Below are positions 15,359 to 43,235 of a DNA stretch of 64,000 bases, piece by piece. This DNA comes from Flavobacterium sp. K5-23 (lineage in GTDB: Bacteria; Bacteroidota; Bacteroidia; Flavobacteriales; Flavobacteriaceae). Position 1 is the first letter of the stretch, and each line of letters starts with the position of its first letter. Where the stretch lies: contig NZ_CP056783.1 in NCBI RefSeq assembly GCF_023278045.1, positions 2,389,501-2,453,500 of the forward strand, read 5' to 3'. A program made the position numbers and the translations under genes. Below the pieces are notes generated by a model that saw only the letters and a list, made by a program, of their open reading frames with translations, did not search any database and was not told the origin of the DNA.

Positions 15359-15430
15359 GGAGCTATTCCTGCTATTCGTTACAATCCACGCTAAAAAAAG
15401 CGTGGGATTTTCTCTTCTATCAGGGCTAGG
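15359..15430 (+). repeat. Dispersed element, short form, copy A (conserved flanks, variable hairpin)
   Basis: Conserved left flank with GCTATTCGTTACAATC (15371-15386), central hairpin CCACGCT / AGCGTGG (15386-15392 with 15399-15405), right flank GGATTTTCTCTTCTATC (15405-15421) running into AGGGCTA. The flanks match the reverse complement of 19741-19757 and 19813-19828 (15/16 and 14/17 identical), and the start and end match 43150-43170 and 43208-43221. The central stems share nothing. It lies between kdsA and a lipoprotein gene, both on the minus strand. Confidence 0.85.
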
Positions 15431-15445
15431 AGTATGGAATCAGAA

Positions 15446-18606: not shown

Positions 18607-19686
18607 ATGAAAAAAATAATATCACTAATTTCAATCTCCCTTTTTATTTTAACATCCTGCAAGGGAGAAAAAAAAGAAGCTGTAACTGAATCTCCTGCAA
18701 TTGCTGTAAAAGTTAGCGGAGTTTCAGAAAATGACAACAGTCCATTTGTAAGTGCAAGTGGAAAAATTGAAGCTGAGAACAGTGCTGATTTAAGTACTCG
18801 AATGATGGGTTATGTAACTAAAGTTTATGTAACAGTAGGGCAAAAAGTAAATGCTGGTCAATCATTAGTTAGTATAAATAATACTGACTTACAAGCTAAA
18901 AAAGCACAAGTAGACGCAAGTGTTCTTCAGGCTACTGCGGGTTACAATAGCGCCAAAAAGGACTATGATCGTTTTGTGAATTTATTCAAACAACAAAGTG
19001 CTTCGCAAAAAGAATTAGACGATATGACTGCTCGTTACGAGATGGCCAAAGCTGGACTTGAAGGAGCAAAACAAATGCGAAATGAAGTTTTGGCACAGTT
19101 CAATTATTCTAATATTACGGCTCCGTTTTCAGGTGTTGTGACTAATACTTTTGTAAAAGAAGGAGATATGGCAAACCCAGGAATGCCTTTAGTAAGCGTT
19201 GAAGGAGCTTCAAAACTACAAGTGACTGCTATGGTTTCTGAAAGTGACATTACGGAAATTAAAAAAGGAATGCCGGTAAAAGTTTTAGTAAAATCATCCA
19301 ACAAAAACTTAACTGGAAAAGTGAGCGAAGTGAGTGTATCAGCTAAAAATACGGGCGGTCAGTATTTAGTGAAAATAAATTTAGATAAAACCGATAGTTC
19401 TATCTTATCTGGGATGTTTGTTAATGTTCAATTTCCTGTTGAAAATAAAGTAAGTACTACTTCAAATAATATGGTTTTGGTTCCTGAAAGTGCTTTGGTA
19501 AAACAAGGACAACTTACCGGAATATATACAATAGGAAATGAAAATATTGCCATTCTAAGATGGTTGCGTACAGGAAAAACTTTTGGGAATCAAGTAGAAA
19601 TATTATCTGGATTATCAGCCGATGAGAAATACATCGTATCAGCCGAAGGGAAATTGTTTAATGGAGCGAAAGTTAGTGTTCAGTAA
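18607..19686 (+). CDS. RND efflux periplasmic adaptor (membrane fusion protein), lipoprotein
   Basis: The 359-residue protein has a lipoprotein signal (LFILTSC, C18) anchoring it to the inner membrane. The order is that of the HlyD/MexA family: a first lipoyl half (GYVTKVYVTVGQKVNAGQSL), a helical hairpin with coiled-coil character (ASVLQATAGYNSAKKDYDRF onward), a second lipoyl half (ITAPFSGVVTNTFVKEGDMA), then beta-barrel and membrane-proximal domains. It joins the RND pump to the TolC-like channel. The stop codon lies inside a 26-base repeat (19681-19706) that recurs inverted at 32685-32710. Confidence 0.95.
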   Translation: MKKIISLISISLFILTSCKGEKKEAVTESPAIAVKVSGVSENDNSPFVSASGKIEAENSADLSTRMMGYVTKVYVTVGQKVNAGQSLVSINNTDLQAKKAQVDASVLQATAGYNSAKKDYDRFVNLFKQQSASQKELDDMTARYEMAKAGLEGAKQMRNEVLAQFNYSNITAPFSGVVTNTFVKEGDMANPGMPLVSVEGASKLQVTAMVSESDITEIKKGMPVKVLVKSSNKNLTGKVSEVSVSAKNTGGQYLVKINLDKTDSSILSGMFVNVQFPVENKVSTTSNNMVLVPESALVKQGQLTGIYTIGNENIAILRWLRTGKTFGNQVEILSGLSADEKYIVSAEGKLFNGAKVSVQ

Positions 19687-19706
19687 TCAGTTTTTAGTGT
19701 TCAGTC
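19681..19706 (+). repeat. 26-base dispersed repeat overlapping the adaptor stop codon
   Basis: Starts CAGTAATCAG and ends GTGTTCAGTC; the reverse complement matches 32685-32710 at 25 of 26 positions. The TAA stop of the adaptor gene is part of the repeat. Confidence 0.75.
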
Positions 19707-19730
19707 GAATTAAAAAATAGTCCTTTAATA

Positions 19731-19860
19731 CTGCGTGAGGGATAGCAGTGGAAATCCTTTTTCGTCAGTTCGAGTTTCCGCTTTTTAGCGGAAGTATCGA
19801 GAACACGAAAATGATTGAAACGAATAGCCCGACCCGACCTTTTGAGAGGGTCACGCCCAA
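19731..19860 (-). repeat. Dispersed element, long form, copy C (inside the efflux operon)
   Basis: On the minus strand this 130-base element has the same conserved flanks as copy A (GCTATTCGTTTCAATC from 19828 to 19813; GGATTTCCACTGCTATC from 19757 to 19741). Its centre is a long hairpin tipped by TTCCGCT / AGCGGAA (19776-19782 with 19787-19793) and extended by GTTCGA/TCGAGAAC and TTTTCGT/ACGAAAA segments. The outer ends GCGTGA (19733-19738) and TCACGC (19851-19856) are complementary, and GACCC/GGGTC (19831-19835, 19848-19852) forms a competing small hairpin. It fills the gap between adaptor and pump genes and ends 14 bases before the pump start. It may be a structured RNA or a REP/MITE-like element. 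Confidence 0.85.
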
Positions 19861-19874
19861 ATAAATAAAAAATT

Positions 19875-22800
19875 ATGCAAGAAGGAATTTCAGGTAAAAT
19901 TGCCCATTTTTTCATCAACTCAAAACTAACCATTTTGATGATGGTTGCTTTGATGATCATTGGTGTCTATAGTTCTTTTCTCATTCCAAGAGAAGAAGAA
20001 CCACAAATTAATGTTCCTATGGCCGACGTAATGGTGGGTTATCCAGGAGCGAGTCCTACTGAAGTGGAAAGTCGTGTGGCAAAACCTCTTGAGAAAATTA
20101 TCTCTAATATTAAAGGGGTGGAGCACGTGCATACGATGGCGATGAATGGTCAAGCAATGCTTATTGTTCAGTTTTATGTAGGTCAAGATGTGGAGCGTTC
20201 GTATGTGAAATTATATGACGAACTGGCAAAACACGAAGATATGTTCCCAAAAGGAGTGTACAAACCTATGGTTAAAACACGTTCTATTGATGATGTTCCT
20301 ATGCTTGGAATAACGCTATGGAGTGAAAAAATGGATGATTTTCAATTACGCCAAATTGCGGAAGAAGTGACATCGGAAATTGAAAAAGTGAAGGATGTTG
20401 CCATTACCAAAGAAATTGGTGGAAGAAGTAGAACGCTGAAAGTGGTTCTGGACAAAGATAAAATGGCTGAGAATGGCATTGATGCTTTAGGGATTATGCA
20501 AATGATTCAGGCAAATAACAGCAGTTCTCAATCGGGTAATTTTGTCAATAACGATCAAGAATATTTAATTACTACCGGGAAATTCTTAACATCGGCAGAC
20601 GATGTAGAAAATCTTGTTGTGGGTGTGAATAAAAATAGGCCTGTTTATTTGAAACAAGTTGCCACAATTCAGGATGGTCCTTCGACAGCCAAAAGTTATG
20701 TGTCTTTTGGATACGGAAAAACAAACGATAAATTTAAAACAGCACAATCTGAATATCCTGCGGTTACCATTTCTATTGGTAAAGTAAAAGGAGCAGATGC
20801 AATGAAAATTTCGGAGAAAATCATTGAAAAAGTTGAACATTTAAAGTCGAATTTAATTCCGAATGACGTTCATGTTGAAGTAACTCGTAATTACGGAGAA
20901 ACGGCTTCTGATAAAGTAGGTGAATTGTTATTACACCTTGGTATTGCTATTTTGGCGGTTACATTCTTAGTGATGTTGGCTATGGGATGGCGTGGTGGAT
21001 TAGTTGTTTTCTTCTCGGTTCCACTGACTTTTGCATTGACTTTATTCAGTTATTATATGCTGGATTATACGCTGAATCGTATTACCCTTTTTGCCTTAGT
21101 TTTTGTGGTGGGAATTGTTGTCGATGACAGTATTATTATTGCAGAGAATATGCACAGGCATTTCAAGATGAAACGATTGCCCTTTAAACAAGCAGCAATT
21201 TATGCGATAAATGAAGTAGGGAATCCAACGATTTTAGCAACATTTACGGTTATTGCAGCTATTCTGCCTATGGCATTTGTATCTGGAATGATGGGGCCAT
21301 ATATGAGCCCGATGCCTATAGGTGCTTCGATTGCAATGATTTTATCACTGTTTGTGGCATTGACGGTAACTCCTTATTTAGGATATCATTTATTACAAGA
21401 AAAAGATACGCAAGAACATAAAGAAGCCGAAGGTTTAGAAACCAGTTTTATATATAAAATGTACAATAAACTGGAGCGTCCTTTCTTAGAAAGCAGTATG
21501 AAGAGAAAAGTGCTTCTGGGAGTTACTGTTTTATTGTTATTCGGTTCGATTGCTATGTTCTTTACTCAATCCGTTTTAGTTAAAATGTTACCTTTTGATA
21601 ACAAAAACGAATTCCAAATTGTTATTGATATGCCTGAAGGTACAACGCTGGAAAGAACATCGGCGGTTACTAAGGAAATTGCTCAATATCTGTCAACTAA
21701 GCCAGAAGTAGTCAATTACCAAAACTACATTGGTACATCGGCACCAATTACTTTCAATGGATTAGTGCGTCATTATGATTTGCGTGGTGGAAGCAATATG
21801 GCTGATATCCAAGTGAATTTATTGCACAAAGAAGATCGAAAGTTACAAAGTCATGATATCGCAAAAGAGCTGCGTCCTGAAATTCAGAAAATAGCACAAA
21901 AGTATGGTGCAAATGTAAAAATTATTGAAGTTCCGCCAGGGCCTCCAGTATTGTCAACATTAGTGGCAGAGATATATGGACCGGACTATAATGAACAAAT
22001 AAAAGTGGCTGATCAGGTAAAAGGGATTCTTCAAAAAACGGAAGGAATTGTAGATATTGATTGGACAGTTGAAGACAATCAAGTAGAATACAAGTTGGAA
22101 GTGGACAAAGAAAAAGCAATGCTAAATGGGATTGCACCACAACAAATTGTTGGGAATTTGACCTATTTATTAAAAGAATATCCCGTTTCTAATTTATATG
22201 ATGAAAATTCGAATGATAATGTAGGTATTGTTCTTTCGCTTGACGATAAAGACAAAACAAGTTTGCAAGACATTCAGAACCTTAAAATAAAAGGAAATCA
22301 AGGGAATATGATTCCGGTGAGTGATTTGGTTAAAGTAAAAACAGGAACACTTGAAAAAACCATTTATAGAAAAGACCAAAAGCGAGTTGTTTATGTAACG
22401 GCTGATATGGCTGGAGCTTTAGAAAGTCCCGTGTATGCTATTCTTGGAATGGATAAAGAATTGCAAAAAATAAAATTACCAAAAGGATATAAGATCAATG
22501 AGCTTTATATGGAGCAACCTTCAGACGAAAGTGATTTTACGGTAAAATGGGATGGTGAATGGCAAATTACCTTGGAAGTGTTCCGTGATTTAGGTGTTGC
22601 CTTTATGGTTGTAATCGTCATCATCTATATGTTGATTGTGGGTTGGTTTCAAAACTTCAAAACGCCAATTGTGATGATGCTTGCGATTCCGTTATCCTTA
22701 ATCGGGATTGTATTAGGGCACTGGGTATTAGGAGCGTTCTTTACGGCGACTTCGTTTATTGGTATGATTGCTTTGGCAGGTGTTATGGTCAGGAACTCGG

Positions 22801-23117
22801 TCTTACTTATCGATTTTATCGAAATACGACTGAATGATGGTGTGCCTTTGAAAGAAGCTATTATTGAAGCTGGAGCGGTTAGAACAACCCCTATTTTGTT
22901 AACTACCGGAGCGGTTGTAATAGGTGCGTCAATCATATTGTTTGATCCTATTTTCCAAGGATTGGCAATTTCATTAGTAGCTGGAGCAATTGTTTCCACA
23001 ATACTTACATTAATTGTGGTGCCGTTGATTTATTATATAACGGAGAGAAAGAAGTGGGAATCCTCCCCCAACCCCTCCGAAGGAGGGGAGTCAGAAACCA
23101 ATACTCATAATTCATAA
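19875..23117 (+). CDS. RND efflux transporter permease (AcrB/HAE family)
   Basis: The 1080-residue protein has the duplicated RND architecture: one membrane helix, a large periplasmic loop, a helix bundle, a second large loop and a second bundle. The proton-relay aspartates D417 and D418 are in GIVVDDSIIIAENMHRH; the second half shows SLIGIVLGHWVLGAFFTATS and MIALAGVMVRNSVLLIDFIE. It exports drugs, bile-like detergents or metabolites by proton antiport with its adaptor and TolC partners; the substrate is not readable. The last residues after ITERKKWE (SSPNPSEGGES and on) are not native RND sequence: they are the translation of a GC-rich palindromic repeat (23061-23092). Confidence 0.96.
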   Translation: MQEGISGKIAHFFINSKLTILMMVALMIIGVYSSFLIPREEEPQINVPMADVMVGYPGASPTEVESRVAKPLEKIISNIKGVEHVHTMAMNGQAMLIVQFYVGQDVERSYVKLYDELAKHEDMFPKGVYKPMVKTRSIDDVPMLGITLWSEKMDDFQLRQIAEEVTSEIEKVKDVAITKEIGGRSRTLKVVLDKDKMAENGIDALGIMQMIQANNSSSQSGNFVNNDQEYLITTGKFLTSADDVENLVVGVNKNRPVYLKQVATIQDGPSTAKSYVSFGYGKTNDKFKTAQSEYPAVTISIGKVKGADAMKISEKIIEKVEHLKSNLIPNDVHVEVTRNYGETASDKVGELLLHLGIAILAVTFLVMLAMGWRGGLVVFFSVPLTFALTLFSYYMLDYTLNRITLFALVFVVGIVVDDSIIIAENMHRHFKMKRLPFKQAAIYAINEVGNPTILATFTVIAAILPMAFVSGMMGPYMSPMPIGASIAMILSLFVALTVTPYLGYHLLQEKDTQEHKEAEGLETSFIYKMYNKLERPFLESSMKRKVLLGVTVLLLFGSIAMFFTQSVLVKMLPFDNKNEFQIVIDMPEGTTLERTSAVTKEIAQYLSTKPEVVNYQNYIGTSAPITFNGLVRHYDLRGGSNMADIQVNLLHKEDRKLQSHDIAKELRPEIQKIAQKYGANVKIIEVPPGPPVLSTLVAEIYGPDYNEQIKVADQVKGILQKTEGIVDIDWTVEDNQVEYKLEVDKEKAMLNGIAPQQIVGNLTYLLKEYPVSNLYDENSNDNVGIVLSLDDKDKTSLQDIQNLKIKGNQGNMIPVSDLVKVKTGTLEKTIYRKDQKRVVYVTADMAGALESPVYAILGMDKELQKIKLPKGYKINELYMEQPSDESDFTVKWDGEWQITLEVFRDLGVAFMVVIVIIYMLIVGWFQNFKTPIVMMLAIPLSLIGIVLGHWVLGAFFTATSFIGMIALAGVMVRNSVLLIDFIEIRLNDGVPLKEAIIEAGAVRTTPILLTTGAVVIGASIILFDPIFQGLAISLVAGAIVSTILTLIVVPLIYYITERKKWESSPNPSEGGESETNTHNS
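23061..23092 (+). repeat. GC-rich palindromic repeat inside the 3' end of the RND pump gene
   Basis: CCCCTCC (23072-23078) pairs with GGAGGGG (23082-23088) around a GAA loop. Read in reverse it matches the core of the tandem repeat at 5962-6079 (GTCCCCCTCTCC then GGAGAGGG, against GACTCCCCTCC then GGAGGGG). The sequence is in frame and encodes SSPNPSEGGES. Confidence 0.85.
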
Positions 23118-23128
23118 CTCATAATTGT

Positions 23129-23434
23129 ATGAAGCTACTAATCATAACAGCCATAGCGGCATTTGACAAAGACATCAAAAAAATGCTGAAGCTGGCAGAT
23201 GTAAAAACCTTTACATACAAAGAGGTAATTGGATTCAAAGATTTATCTGAAGAAGCTATTGAAAGTAATTGGTTTGGAAGCGAAATGAATGAAAATGAAT
23301 CGGTACTTTATTATGCTTTTATAAAGAAAGAAAAAGTGGATCCGTTTTTTGAACTTGTAAATAAATTTAATGGGGAACAGGAAAGTTTATCCAATATTCA
23401 TATCGCCGTATTAAACATTGAAAAATCAAATTAA
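23129..23434 (+). CDS. Small PII-like protein of the efflux operon
   Basis: A 101-residue cytoplasmic protein that starts 11 bases after the pump stop. The pattern, a first strand (MKLLIITAIAAF), a helix (DKDIKKMLKLA), strands (VKTFTYKEVIGF and SVLYYAFIKKE), a helix (KVDPFFELVNKFN) and a last strand (NIHIAVLNIEKS), is that of a ferredoxin-like PII/DUF3240 fold. Such small proteins accompany some metal-type RND pumps, where regulatory binding of nucleotide or metal is suspected. The assignment rests on fold pattern and position, not on a firm motif. Confidence 0.65.
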   Translation: MKLLIITAIAAFDKDIKKMLKLADVKTFTYKEVIGFKDLSEEAIESNWFGSEMNENESVLYYAFIKKEKVDPFFELVNKFNGEQESLSNIHIAVLNIEKSN

Positions 23435-43146: not shown

Positions 43147-43223
43147 AAGCTGTTTCCTGCTGTCCGCTGTATTTTTTATTCTGAACCCCAGAATAAAAAG
43201 ATGCTGCTTCCATCAGGGCTAAA
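43147..43223 (+). repeat. Dispersed element, short form, copy B (conserved flanks, variable hairpin)
   Basis: Begins AGCTGTTTCCTGCTGTCCG, matching the start of copy A (AGCTATTCCTGCTATTCG), and ends TTCCATCAGGGCTA (43208-43221), which matches 15415-15428 at 13 of 14 positions. The centre is an 11-bp hairpin TTTTTATTCTG (43173-43183) with CAGAATAAAAA (43189-43199), unrelated to the centres of copies A and C. It sits between yihY and the DUF2147 gene, ending 13 bases before the latter's start. Confidence 0.82.
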
Positions 43224-43235
43224 ATAAAAGAAACC

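What the first reader, a model, noticed from the sequence alone, without database searches (positions are those of the whole stretch)
19731..19860. Structured 130-base element placed inside the RND efflux operon
Seen: a GC-richer block with complementary ends, a long composite hairpin and a second competing hairpin fills the gap between adaptor and pump genes and ends 14 bases before the pump ATG. Its conserved flanks recur in two shorter copies elsewhere in the window. Inference: as part of the operon mRNA it could set the ratio of pump to adaptor by attenuation or processing, or be a mobile REP/MITE-like element that landed there. It may also belong to a described Flavobacteria RNA class such as Flavo-1; I cannot test that here.
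Basis: partly seen in the sequence, partly recalled or inferred. Interest (0 to 1): 0.75.

Follow-up and report, generated by a model that had tools for sequence, protein, structure and literature searches.

The report
Hairpin repeat inside an efflux-pump operon
The element is an enlarged copy of Flavo-1, a known but unexplained family of folded repeats in flavobacteria, and many related bacteria carry such a copy at the same place and the same way round inside this efflux-pump operon, which suggests that it acts there on the messenger RNA rather than having landed by chance.

Summary
The element is real and is Rfam Flavo-1 (RF01705, 52 bits), one of 81 hits in this 3.49-Mb genome. Its limits are about 19733-19858. 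It is an extended form ("type B"): an outer helix, the Flavo-1 stem and a third helix make one three-way junction with strong covariation. The helices are compatible, not competing. A second dispersed repeat is nested in the apex.

The main new result is positional. Of 96 adaptor-pump junctions from Flavobacterium and relatives, 35 hold a type B element, all sense, none antisense. It ends 14-19 nt before the pump start in 28 of 34 measurable cases. The OMF-adaptor gap of the same operons holds a Flavo-1 copy in 1 of 92. Other recurrent sites exist (trpB, lepA).

A RAYT transposase is not required; no terminator-like site was found; downstream genes are too diverse for one riboswitch ligand.

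Best reading: a retained intercistronic RNA working like ERIC repeats, uncoupling the adaptor and pump cistrons. Its effect on expression is inferred, not shown. Known class, new architecture and a conserved site.

The parts
19733..19858 (+). Flavo-1 element, extended three-way-junction form (type B)
   Evidence: Rfam RF01705 match 19715-19838; model R1 match G000:C1:2409232-2409358 = window 19732-19858, 71.4 bits; fold z -4.0
19733..19738 (+). outer helix, 5' strand GCGTGA
   Evidence: pairs with 19851-19856. Five of the six pairs hold widely; the sixth (A with T) holds in 11 of 33 junction copies and 30 of 80 others
19739..19756 (+). Flavo-1 stem, 5' strand, with two purine-rich internal loops
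19764..19804 (+). second dispersed repeat nested in the apex (GTCAGTTCGAGT..ATCGAGAAC)
   Evidence: two further copies in the genome, neither at a listed Flavo-1 hit; reversed control pattern 0; same nested repeat in junction elements of L086, L140, L141, L145
19813..19830 (+). Flavo-1 stem, 3' strand
19833..19850 (+). third helix (CCC 19833-19835 with GGG 19848-19850)
   Evidence: the columns are empty in 14 of 33 junction copies
19851..19856 (+). outer helix, 3' strand TCACGC
19859..19874 (+). 16-nt spacer of A and T only before the pump ATG
   Evidence: the spacer is 14-19 nt in 28 of 34 junctions
18607..19686 (+). RND periplasmic adaptor gene
   Evidence: NCBIfam TIGR01730, 212 bits, over its cut-off
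19875..23117 (+). RND pump gene
   Evidence: Pfam PF00873 ACR_tran, 514 bits
17222..18535 (+). outer-membrane efflux protein gene, first gene of the trio
   Evidence: Pfam PF02321 OEP
15361..15431 (-). Flavo-1 copy, common form (type A)
   Evidence: 57.6 bits
43149..43224 (-). Flavo-1 copy, common form (type A)
   Evidence: 70.9 bits

Best explanation
The element is a copy of the dispersed structured repeat Flavo-1, in an extended three-way-junction form. It has been retained, or repeatedly re-acquired, in the sense orientation between adaptor and pump, where it would be co-transcribed and act in cis as an intercistronic RNA. The compact fold ends 16 nt before the pump start codon. There it would separate the two cistrons: it leaves an unstructured A/T-only initiation region for independent translation of the pump, and it would be a boundary for mRNA decay or cleavage, so that adaptor and pump messages have different lifetimes, much as ERIC repeats are reported to act in Yersinia. 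Shown: family membership, fold with compensatory changes, conserved site, orientation and spacing. Inferred: co-transcription, translational uncoupling, differential decay.
For: Type B element in 35 of 96 adaptor-pump junctions, 35 sense and 0 antisense; of 38 R1 hits at E<=0.1 in 100 of the 101 loci, 35 lie in this junction. End 14-19 nt before the pump start in 28 of 34. A Flavo-1 copy in 1 of 92 OMF-adaptor gaps of the same operons. Presence clusters on the pump tree: 20 changes against a mean of 29.5 and a minimum of 24 in 300 label shuffles. Covariation in 24 of 30 pairs over 33 junction copies. Elsewhere, sense copies lie 8-30 nt before a start codon in 18 of 42, antisense copies in 7 of 78. 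No terminator-like site. The strand of the operon mRNA folds better than its complement (-43.9 against -37.4 kcal/mol). Precedent: ERIC in Yersinia, orientation-dependent effect on upstream and downstream mRNA stability (PMC2229807, passages).
Against: 61 of 96 junctions have no type B element by the pattern used; in one genome (G025) one paralogous operon has it and the other has not (L171, L186). In 6 of 34 junctions the element ends 48-120 nt before the start. Most type B copies in tandem contexts elsewhere are antisense to their neighbours (62 against 25), so the family as a whole is not a sense leader element. In F. psychrophilum Flavo-1 hits were reported in sense and antisense of transcribed regions and many outside them (PMC9723704, passages). 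The G.T over A.C excess expected for RNA is weak and does not follow gene orientation. None of the 28 best-per-genome hits from other genera is at this junction. No expression data were available.
Confidence: 0.5

Rival explanations
1. A passive repeat: one or a few old insertions of a selfish hairpin element at a permissive gap, inherited vertically and sometimes refreshed by gene conversion or re-insertion, with no effect on the operon.
For: 81 hits in the genome; each recurrent site elsewhere also keeps one orientation (trpB 10 loci, lepA 6, serB-like 5), as plain descent predicts; 20 parsimony changes; other palindromic repeats occupy some element-free junctions; element-free junctions over 60 nt fold no better than control gaps (z below -2 in 6 of 25 against 7 of 27).
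Against: Long persistence in many genera at 14-19 nt from the start codon while the neighbouring OMF-adaptor gap has 1 of 92; outer helix and stem keep pairing while their letters change, although gene conversion from other copies could also do that.
Confidence: 0.33
2. An independent small-RNA gene, as the Rfam type label 'Gene; sRNA' suggests.
For: Rfam type label; 'RNA? probably; cis-regulatory? no' in Weinberg et al. 2010 (PMC2864571, table passage).
Against: 81 hits in one genome; place just before a start codon inside an operon; no sigma-70-type promoter match in 19400-20100 (a scan that does not cover flavobacterial promoters).
Confidence: 0.05
3. An attenuator or riboswitch that senses a signal and stops or lets pass transcription or translation of the pump.
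For: Intercistronic position and conserved internal loops.
Against: No terminator-like site in 19400-20100; helices compatible rather than alternative; sense copies 8-30 nt before starts precede unrelated genes.
Confidence: 0.05
4. A REP/REPIN-type DNA element moved by a RAYT (Y1/HuH) transposase.
For: Two Y1 loci of the genome have a Flavo-1 copy within about 1.5 kb.
Against: The RAYT-like gene in L033 is flanked by its own 25-nt inverted repeat, not by Flavo-1; 21 of 61 congeneric genomes have no Y1 match at E<=1e-3, among them G004 with 101 and G011 with 46 Flavo-1 hits.
Confidence: 0.04

Closest known systems
Flavo-1 RNA, Rfam RF01705 (Weinberg et al. 2010)
   Same: Scores 52 bits against a gathering score of 42 and has the same stem with its two internal loops
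   Different: Adds an outer helix and a third helix that the 76-position model lacks, and a nested repeat in the apex
ERIC repeats of enterobacteria
   Same: Works like: about 127-bp hairpin repeat, co-transcribed between genes, orientation-dependent effect on mRNA stability (PMC2229807 passages)
   Different: Unrelated by the letters seen (no alignment run) and another phylum; effect of Flavo-1 on mRNA not measured
NEMIS/Correia elements of Neisseria
   Same: Dispersed hairpin repeat proposed to act in neighbouring mRNAs through RNase III (PMC2229807 passages)
   Different: Terminal inverted repeats and target duplication are reported for Correia/NEMIS and were not tested here; RNase III processing not tested
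REP elements with TnpA-REP/RAYT (subclass 2.6 of Bacteroidetes)
   Same: Dispersed palindromic repeats near stop codons; subclass 2.6 genes are said to be flanked by atypical structures (PMC6006769 passages)
   Different: Occurs in quantity without any Y1 gene; the RAYT-like gene here has another repeat

Membership tests
Flavo-1 (RF01705) | Score over the curated gathering threshold | tested here: met
   52.0 against 42 bits
Flavo-1 (RF01705) | Stem with the conserved internal loops | tested here: met
   Alignment to the model; pairs recovered by RNAalifold on junction copies
Flavo-1 (RF01705) | Function as a free small RNA (Rfam type label) | not testable with these tools
   No transcript data; 81 hits in the genome speak against
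REP/RAYT elements | Dependence on a Y1 transposase in the genome | tested here: not met
   21 of 61 congeners without a Y1 match, some rich in Flavo-1
REP/RAYT elements | Copies flanking the RAYT gene | tested here: not met
   L033 gene flanked by a different 25-nt repeat; one genome examined
MITE | Target-site duplication at the ends | not tested
   Flanks were printed but no systematic test was made
Intrinsic terminator / attenuator | G+C-rich hairpin followed by a U-run | tested here: not met
   0 terminator-like sites in 19400-20100
Metabolite riboswitch | Association with functionally related downstream genes | tested here: not met
   Sense copies 8-30 nt before a start precede unrelated genes
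ERIC-like intercistronic element (works like) | Different stability of upstream and downstream mRNA | not testable with these tools
   Needs RNA decay data

The most novel reading that the evidence does not exclude
Flavo-1 type B is an ancient cis-acting RNA of Flavobacteriia that is kept (or repeatedly re-acquired) at chosen operon joints, the RND adaptor-pump junction being the most widespread seen here. A dimeric protein would read its nearly dyad-symmetric core, in which both strands run 5'-GNA, two paired bases, GNA-3' and form two facing 3x3 internal loops, and so uncouple the expression of adjacent cistrons.
Probability: 0.15. Interest if true: 0.8.

Novelty: new variant of a known kind. 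Interest (0 to 1): 0.52.

Why it matters
Flavo-1 came from the 2010 survey without a function, and the one transcriptome paper found here that discusses it reports no real clue (passages). A site where the element is kept in one orientation at a near-fixed distance from a start codon in many genera, with an internal control junction that lacks it, makes its function directly testable. If the mechanism holds, part of the expression balance of a widespread RND efflux system depends on a repeat family. The extended architecture also means the Rfam model's boundaries should be revised.

Tried and rejected
RAYT/REP origin: pursued because two Y1 loci lie near Flavo-1 copies; dropped after L033's own inverted repeat and the Y1-free genomes rich in Flavo-1.

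Strand test by G.T against A.C mispairs: two first versions were confounded by conserved loop positions; the third gave 76:48, p 0.015. On the fitted alignments it was 17:7 and 29:6, which lean towards G.T by construction. The lean is the same in antisense copies (11:2). Weak, not used as proof.

Junction selected for any hairpin at all: element-free junctions over 60 nt fold no better than control gaps (6 of 25 against 7 of 27 with z below -2).

Integron attC likeness was considered from the ends and dropped by eye (recalled consensus, no call).

Rows dropped or sorted: the regular-expression sorting into types A and B mis-sorted some copies, so later counts use model R1. L122 has a divergent junction element by eye that R1 does not match; it is counted only where I write 36. 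One search was given 34 sources, without L088 (it has a second partial hit) and L141 (same sequence as L140). The context count used 134 of the 137 hits; L194 and L195 (weakest) and L221 (same copy as L048) were left out. The 80 pump loci are a capped best list and were not de-duplicated. One search listed only part of its matches, and I fetched 80 of those.

Papers: 'Flavo-1 RNA' 0, 'Flavo-1' 3, 'RF01705' 4. Passages only were seen of PMC9723704, PMC9029176, PMC2864571, PMC6006769, PMC3733652, PMC12306157 and PMC2229807; PMC3765529 and PMC7682815 were seen as listing only. The library lacks most subscription journals, and supplements could not be read.

Full report
What is there. The gap between the RND adaptor (18607-19686) and pump (19875-23117) is 188 nt. 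Adaptor, pump and upstream OMF gene were identified with NCBIfam and Pfam. Rfam finds three Flavo-1 (RF01705) members in the window: 19715-19838 (+) at 52 bits, 15361-15431 (-) at 57.6 and 43149-43224 (-) at 70.9, gathering score 42. The whole genome (3,490,877 bases, one contig) has 81 hits at E<=1e-3, 68 of them over the gathering score.

Two architectures. The 81 copies were read with flanks. The common form (type A) runs TAGCCC..GAT..stem..AGC..GGAA..AGCTCC. The finding belongs to a second form (type B), GCGTGAGGGAT..stem..AGCCCGACCC..GGGTCACGCCC, with an outer helix and a third helix that the 76-position Rfam model does not contain; Rfam's match is stretched into the 5' flank instead. A covariance model R1, built from 21 natural junction copies, gives 51 hits in the genome at E<=0.01, 25 of them at 48 bits or more. 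Many of the weaker ones coincide with type A copies. The window copy is 19732-19858 in R1.

Fold. 19733-19858 folds at -43.9 kcal/mol (z -4.0, 0 of 200 shuffles as good); its reverse complement at -37.4 (z -2.9, 2 of 200). Over 33 junction copies 90.7% of cells pair and 24 of 30 pairs show changes on both sides; the covariation score is 0.366 against 0.130 in shuffles and at most 0.107 in slid versions. Over 82 type B copies from other sites the figures are 93.3%, 25 of 30, and 0.524 against 0.147. Limits: these alignments are fitted to the model. The sixth outer pair fails in 22 of 33 and 50 of 80. The third helix has no letters in 14 of 33 junction copies. RNAalifold's own prediction on the unfitted alignment recovers the Flavo-1 stem (15 pairs, 12 with double changes) but not the outer and third helices. 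The core is nearly dyad-symmetric: each strand reads 5'-GNA, two paired bases, GNA-3' in the copies read.

Apex. The long hairpin of the window copy is composite. GTCAGTTCGAGT..ATCGAGAAC (19764-19804) occurs at two other places in the genome, the reversed control at none, and is nested likewise in the junction elements of L086 (F. degerlachei), L140, L141 and L145. Other copies carry other palindromes in the apex (for example L020 and L023).

The site is conserved. One search gave the 80 best pump loci of the genome collection, a capped list; one search gave 21 loci from 20 of 61 genomes of the genus, the window's own included. Of these 101 loci 96 show an adaptor-pump pair. 35 of the 96 hold a type B element in sense and none in antisense; 61 have none by the pattern used, among them L122, where a divergent one can be seen by eye. 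R1, over 100 of the 101 loci, found 38 hits at E<=0.1: 35 in this junction and 3 elsewhere (L088 at 9674, L101, L113). Named holders include Flavobacterium, Confluentibacter, Mariniflexile, Polaribacter, Lacinutrix, Cellulophaga, Zobellia, Salinimicrobium and Cryomorpha (record titles). The element ends 14-19 nt before the pump start in 28 of 34 measurable cases and 48-120 nt in 6.

Control and tree. The OMF-adaptor gap of the same operons could be delimited in 92 loci. R1 finds one copy there (L113, reverse-oriented, reading as type A); I also read the 14 gaps over 100 nt. These gaps are shorter (median 48 against 79 nt). 36 of 96 (L122 counted) against 1 of 92 gives Fisher p 1.5e-11, not corrected for descent. 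On a FastTree tree of 96 pumps presence changes 20 times, against a mean of 29.5 and a minimum of 24 in 300 shuffles. The pattern is clustered but has many gains or losses: with equal costs the root lacks the element, with gains five times as costly it has it.

Elsewhere. For 134 type B copies of this genome and congeners, neighbours called by a simple codon-usage ORF finder were tandem-antisense 62, tandem-sense 25, convergent 18, divergent 15, unclear 14. The 3' end of the element lies within 25 nt of a gene boundary in 61 of 132, the 5' end in 14 of 122 (p 7e-10). Sense copies lie 8-30 nt before a start codon in 18 of 42, antisense copies in 7 of 78 (p 3e-5). These p-values ignore that orthologous sites repeat. 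Sites recur in several genomes: beside trpB (10), lepA (6, with one more homologous neighbour in another arrangement), an aspartate-aminotransferase-like gene (7), a serB-like gene (5), RND (5), an hflX-like gene (4 loci) (gene names recalled from the sequences). Of 28 best-per-genome hits from other genera, two precede a 3-hydroxyanthranilate-dioxygenase-like gene (name recalled) at 13 and 14 nt, one lies beside an hflX-like gene, and none is at the RND junction. Type B occurs at E<=1e-8 in 80 of 149 family genomes and at E<=1e-9 in 51 of 61 congeners.

How it may work. A transposase link is not supported: 21 of 61 congeners have no Y1 match, among them G004 with 101 Flavo-1 hits and G011 with 46, and the RAYT-like gene of this genome has its own flanking repeat. 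Termination is not supported. A single ligand is unlikely, since downstream genes are unrelated. What remains is an RNA structure in the operon transcript that ends just short of the pump's A/T-only initiation region. The nearest tested precedent is ERIC in Yersinia, co-transcribed and orientation-dependent in its effect on upstream and downstream mRNA stability (PMC2229807, passages). I commit to that mechanism at 0.5; a passive old repeat is the main rival at 0.33, since other sites also keep their orientation, as descent alone would give. The mispair asymmetry (76:48) leans towards RNA of this strand but does not follow gene orientation.

What is known. Weinberg et al. list Flavo-1 as probably RNA, not cis-regulatory, not a switch (table passage). 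The F. psychrophilum transcriptome paper says that several 5' transcribed regions coincide with Flavo-1 hits, but that hits lie in sense and antisense and many outside transcribed regions, giving no real clue to function (passages). The TnpA-REP and RepRanger papers are not among the 3 papers that hold the word Flavo-1. The class is known; the extended architecture and the conserved operon site were not seen in print in the searches, which cover an open-access library only.

Noticed in passing
L049, L080, L083, L085 (Flavo-1 copies at locus position 1501 onward): Four copies of this genome share a long conserved apex with GAGCGACC..GGAAGCTCC, apparently a further subfamily.
   Followed up: no
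L069, L072, L082: Three copies carry a shared extra segment (..GTTCAGTGAACTTCGTTTG..) between the TAGCCC box and the stem.
   Followed up: no
L033:1258-1985: A RAYT-like Y1 gene is flanked by inverted copies of TAGCGCGGATTTGCAATCCGTGCCC, with a third copy at 2798 near a Flavo-1 copy.
   Followed up: partly
L034:1670-1959: A second Y1-like gene contains arrays of a 15-nt repeat (GAGACGCACGACGTA type) inside its reading frame.
   Followed up: no
L031:1-2610: Two nearly identical Y1 genes lie in a tandem duplication that also repeats the start of a Flavo-1 copy.
   Followed up: no
trpB-adjacent type B copies: L078, L213, L215, L220, L228, L246, L268, L271, L298, L299: In ten genomes a type B copy lies 2-25 nt beyond the trpB stop codon, in the reverse orientation to trpB (gene name recalled).
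   Followed up: partly
adaptor-pump gaps of L096, L107, L128, L169, L170, L175: Some element-free junctions carry other palindromic repeats (CCCCTTTGGGG, CCTGCAAGG and ACCACATAGAAACATAG types).
   Followed up: partly
23129-23434 +: A 101-aa gene directly after the pump has no Pfam or NCBIfam match at E<=1e-3.
   Followed up: no
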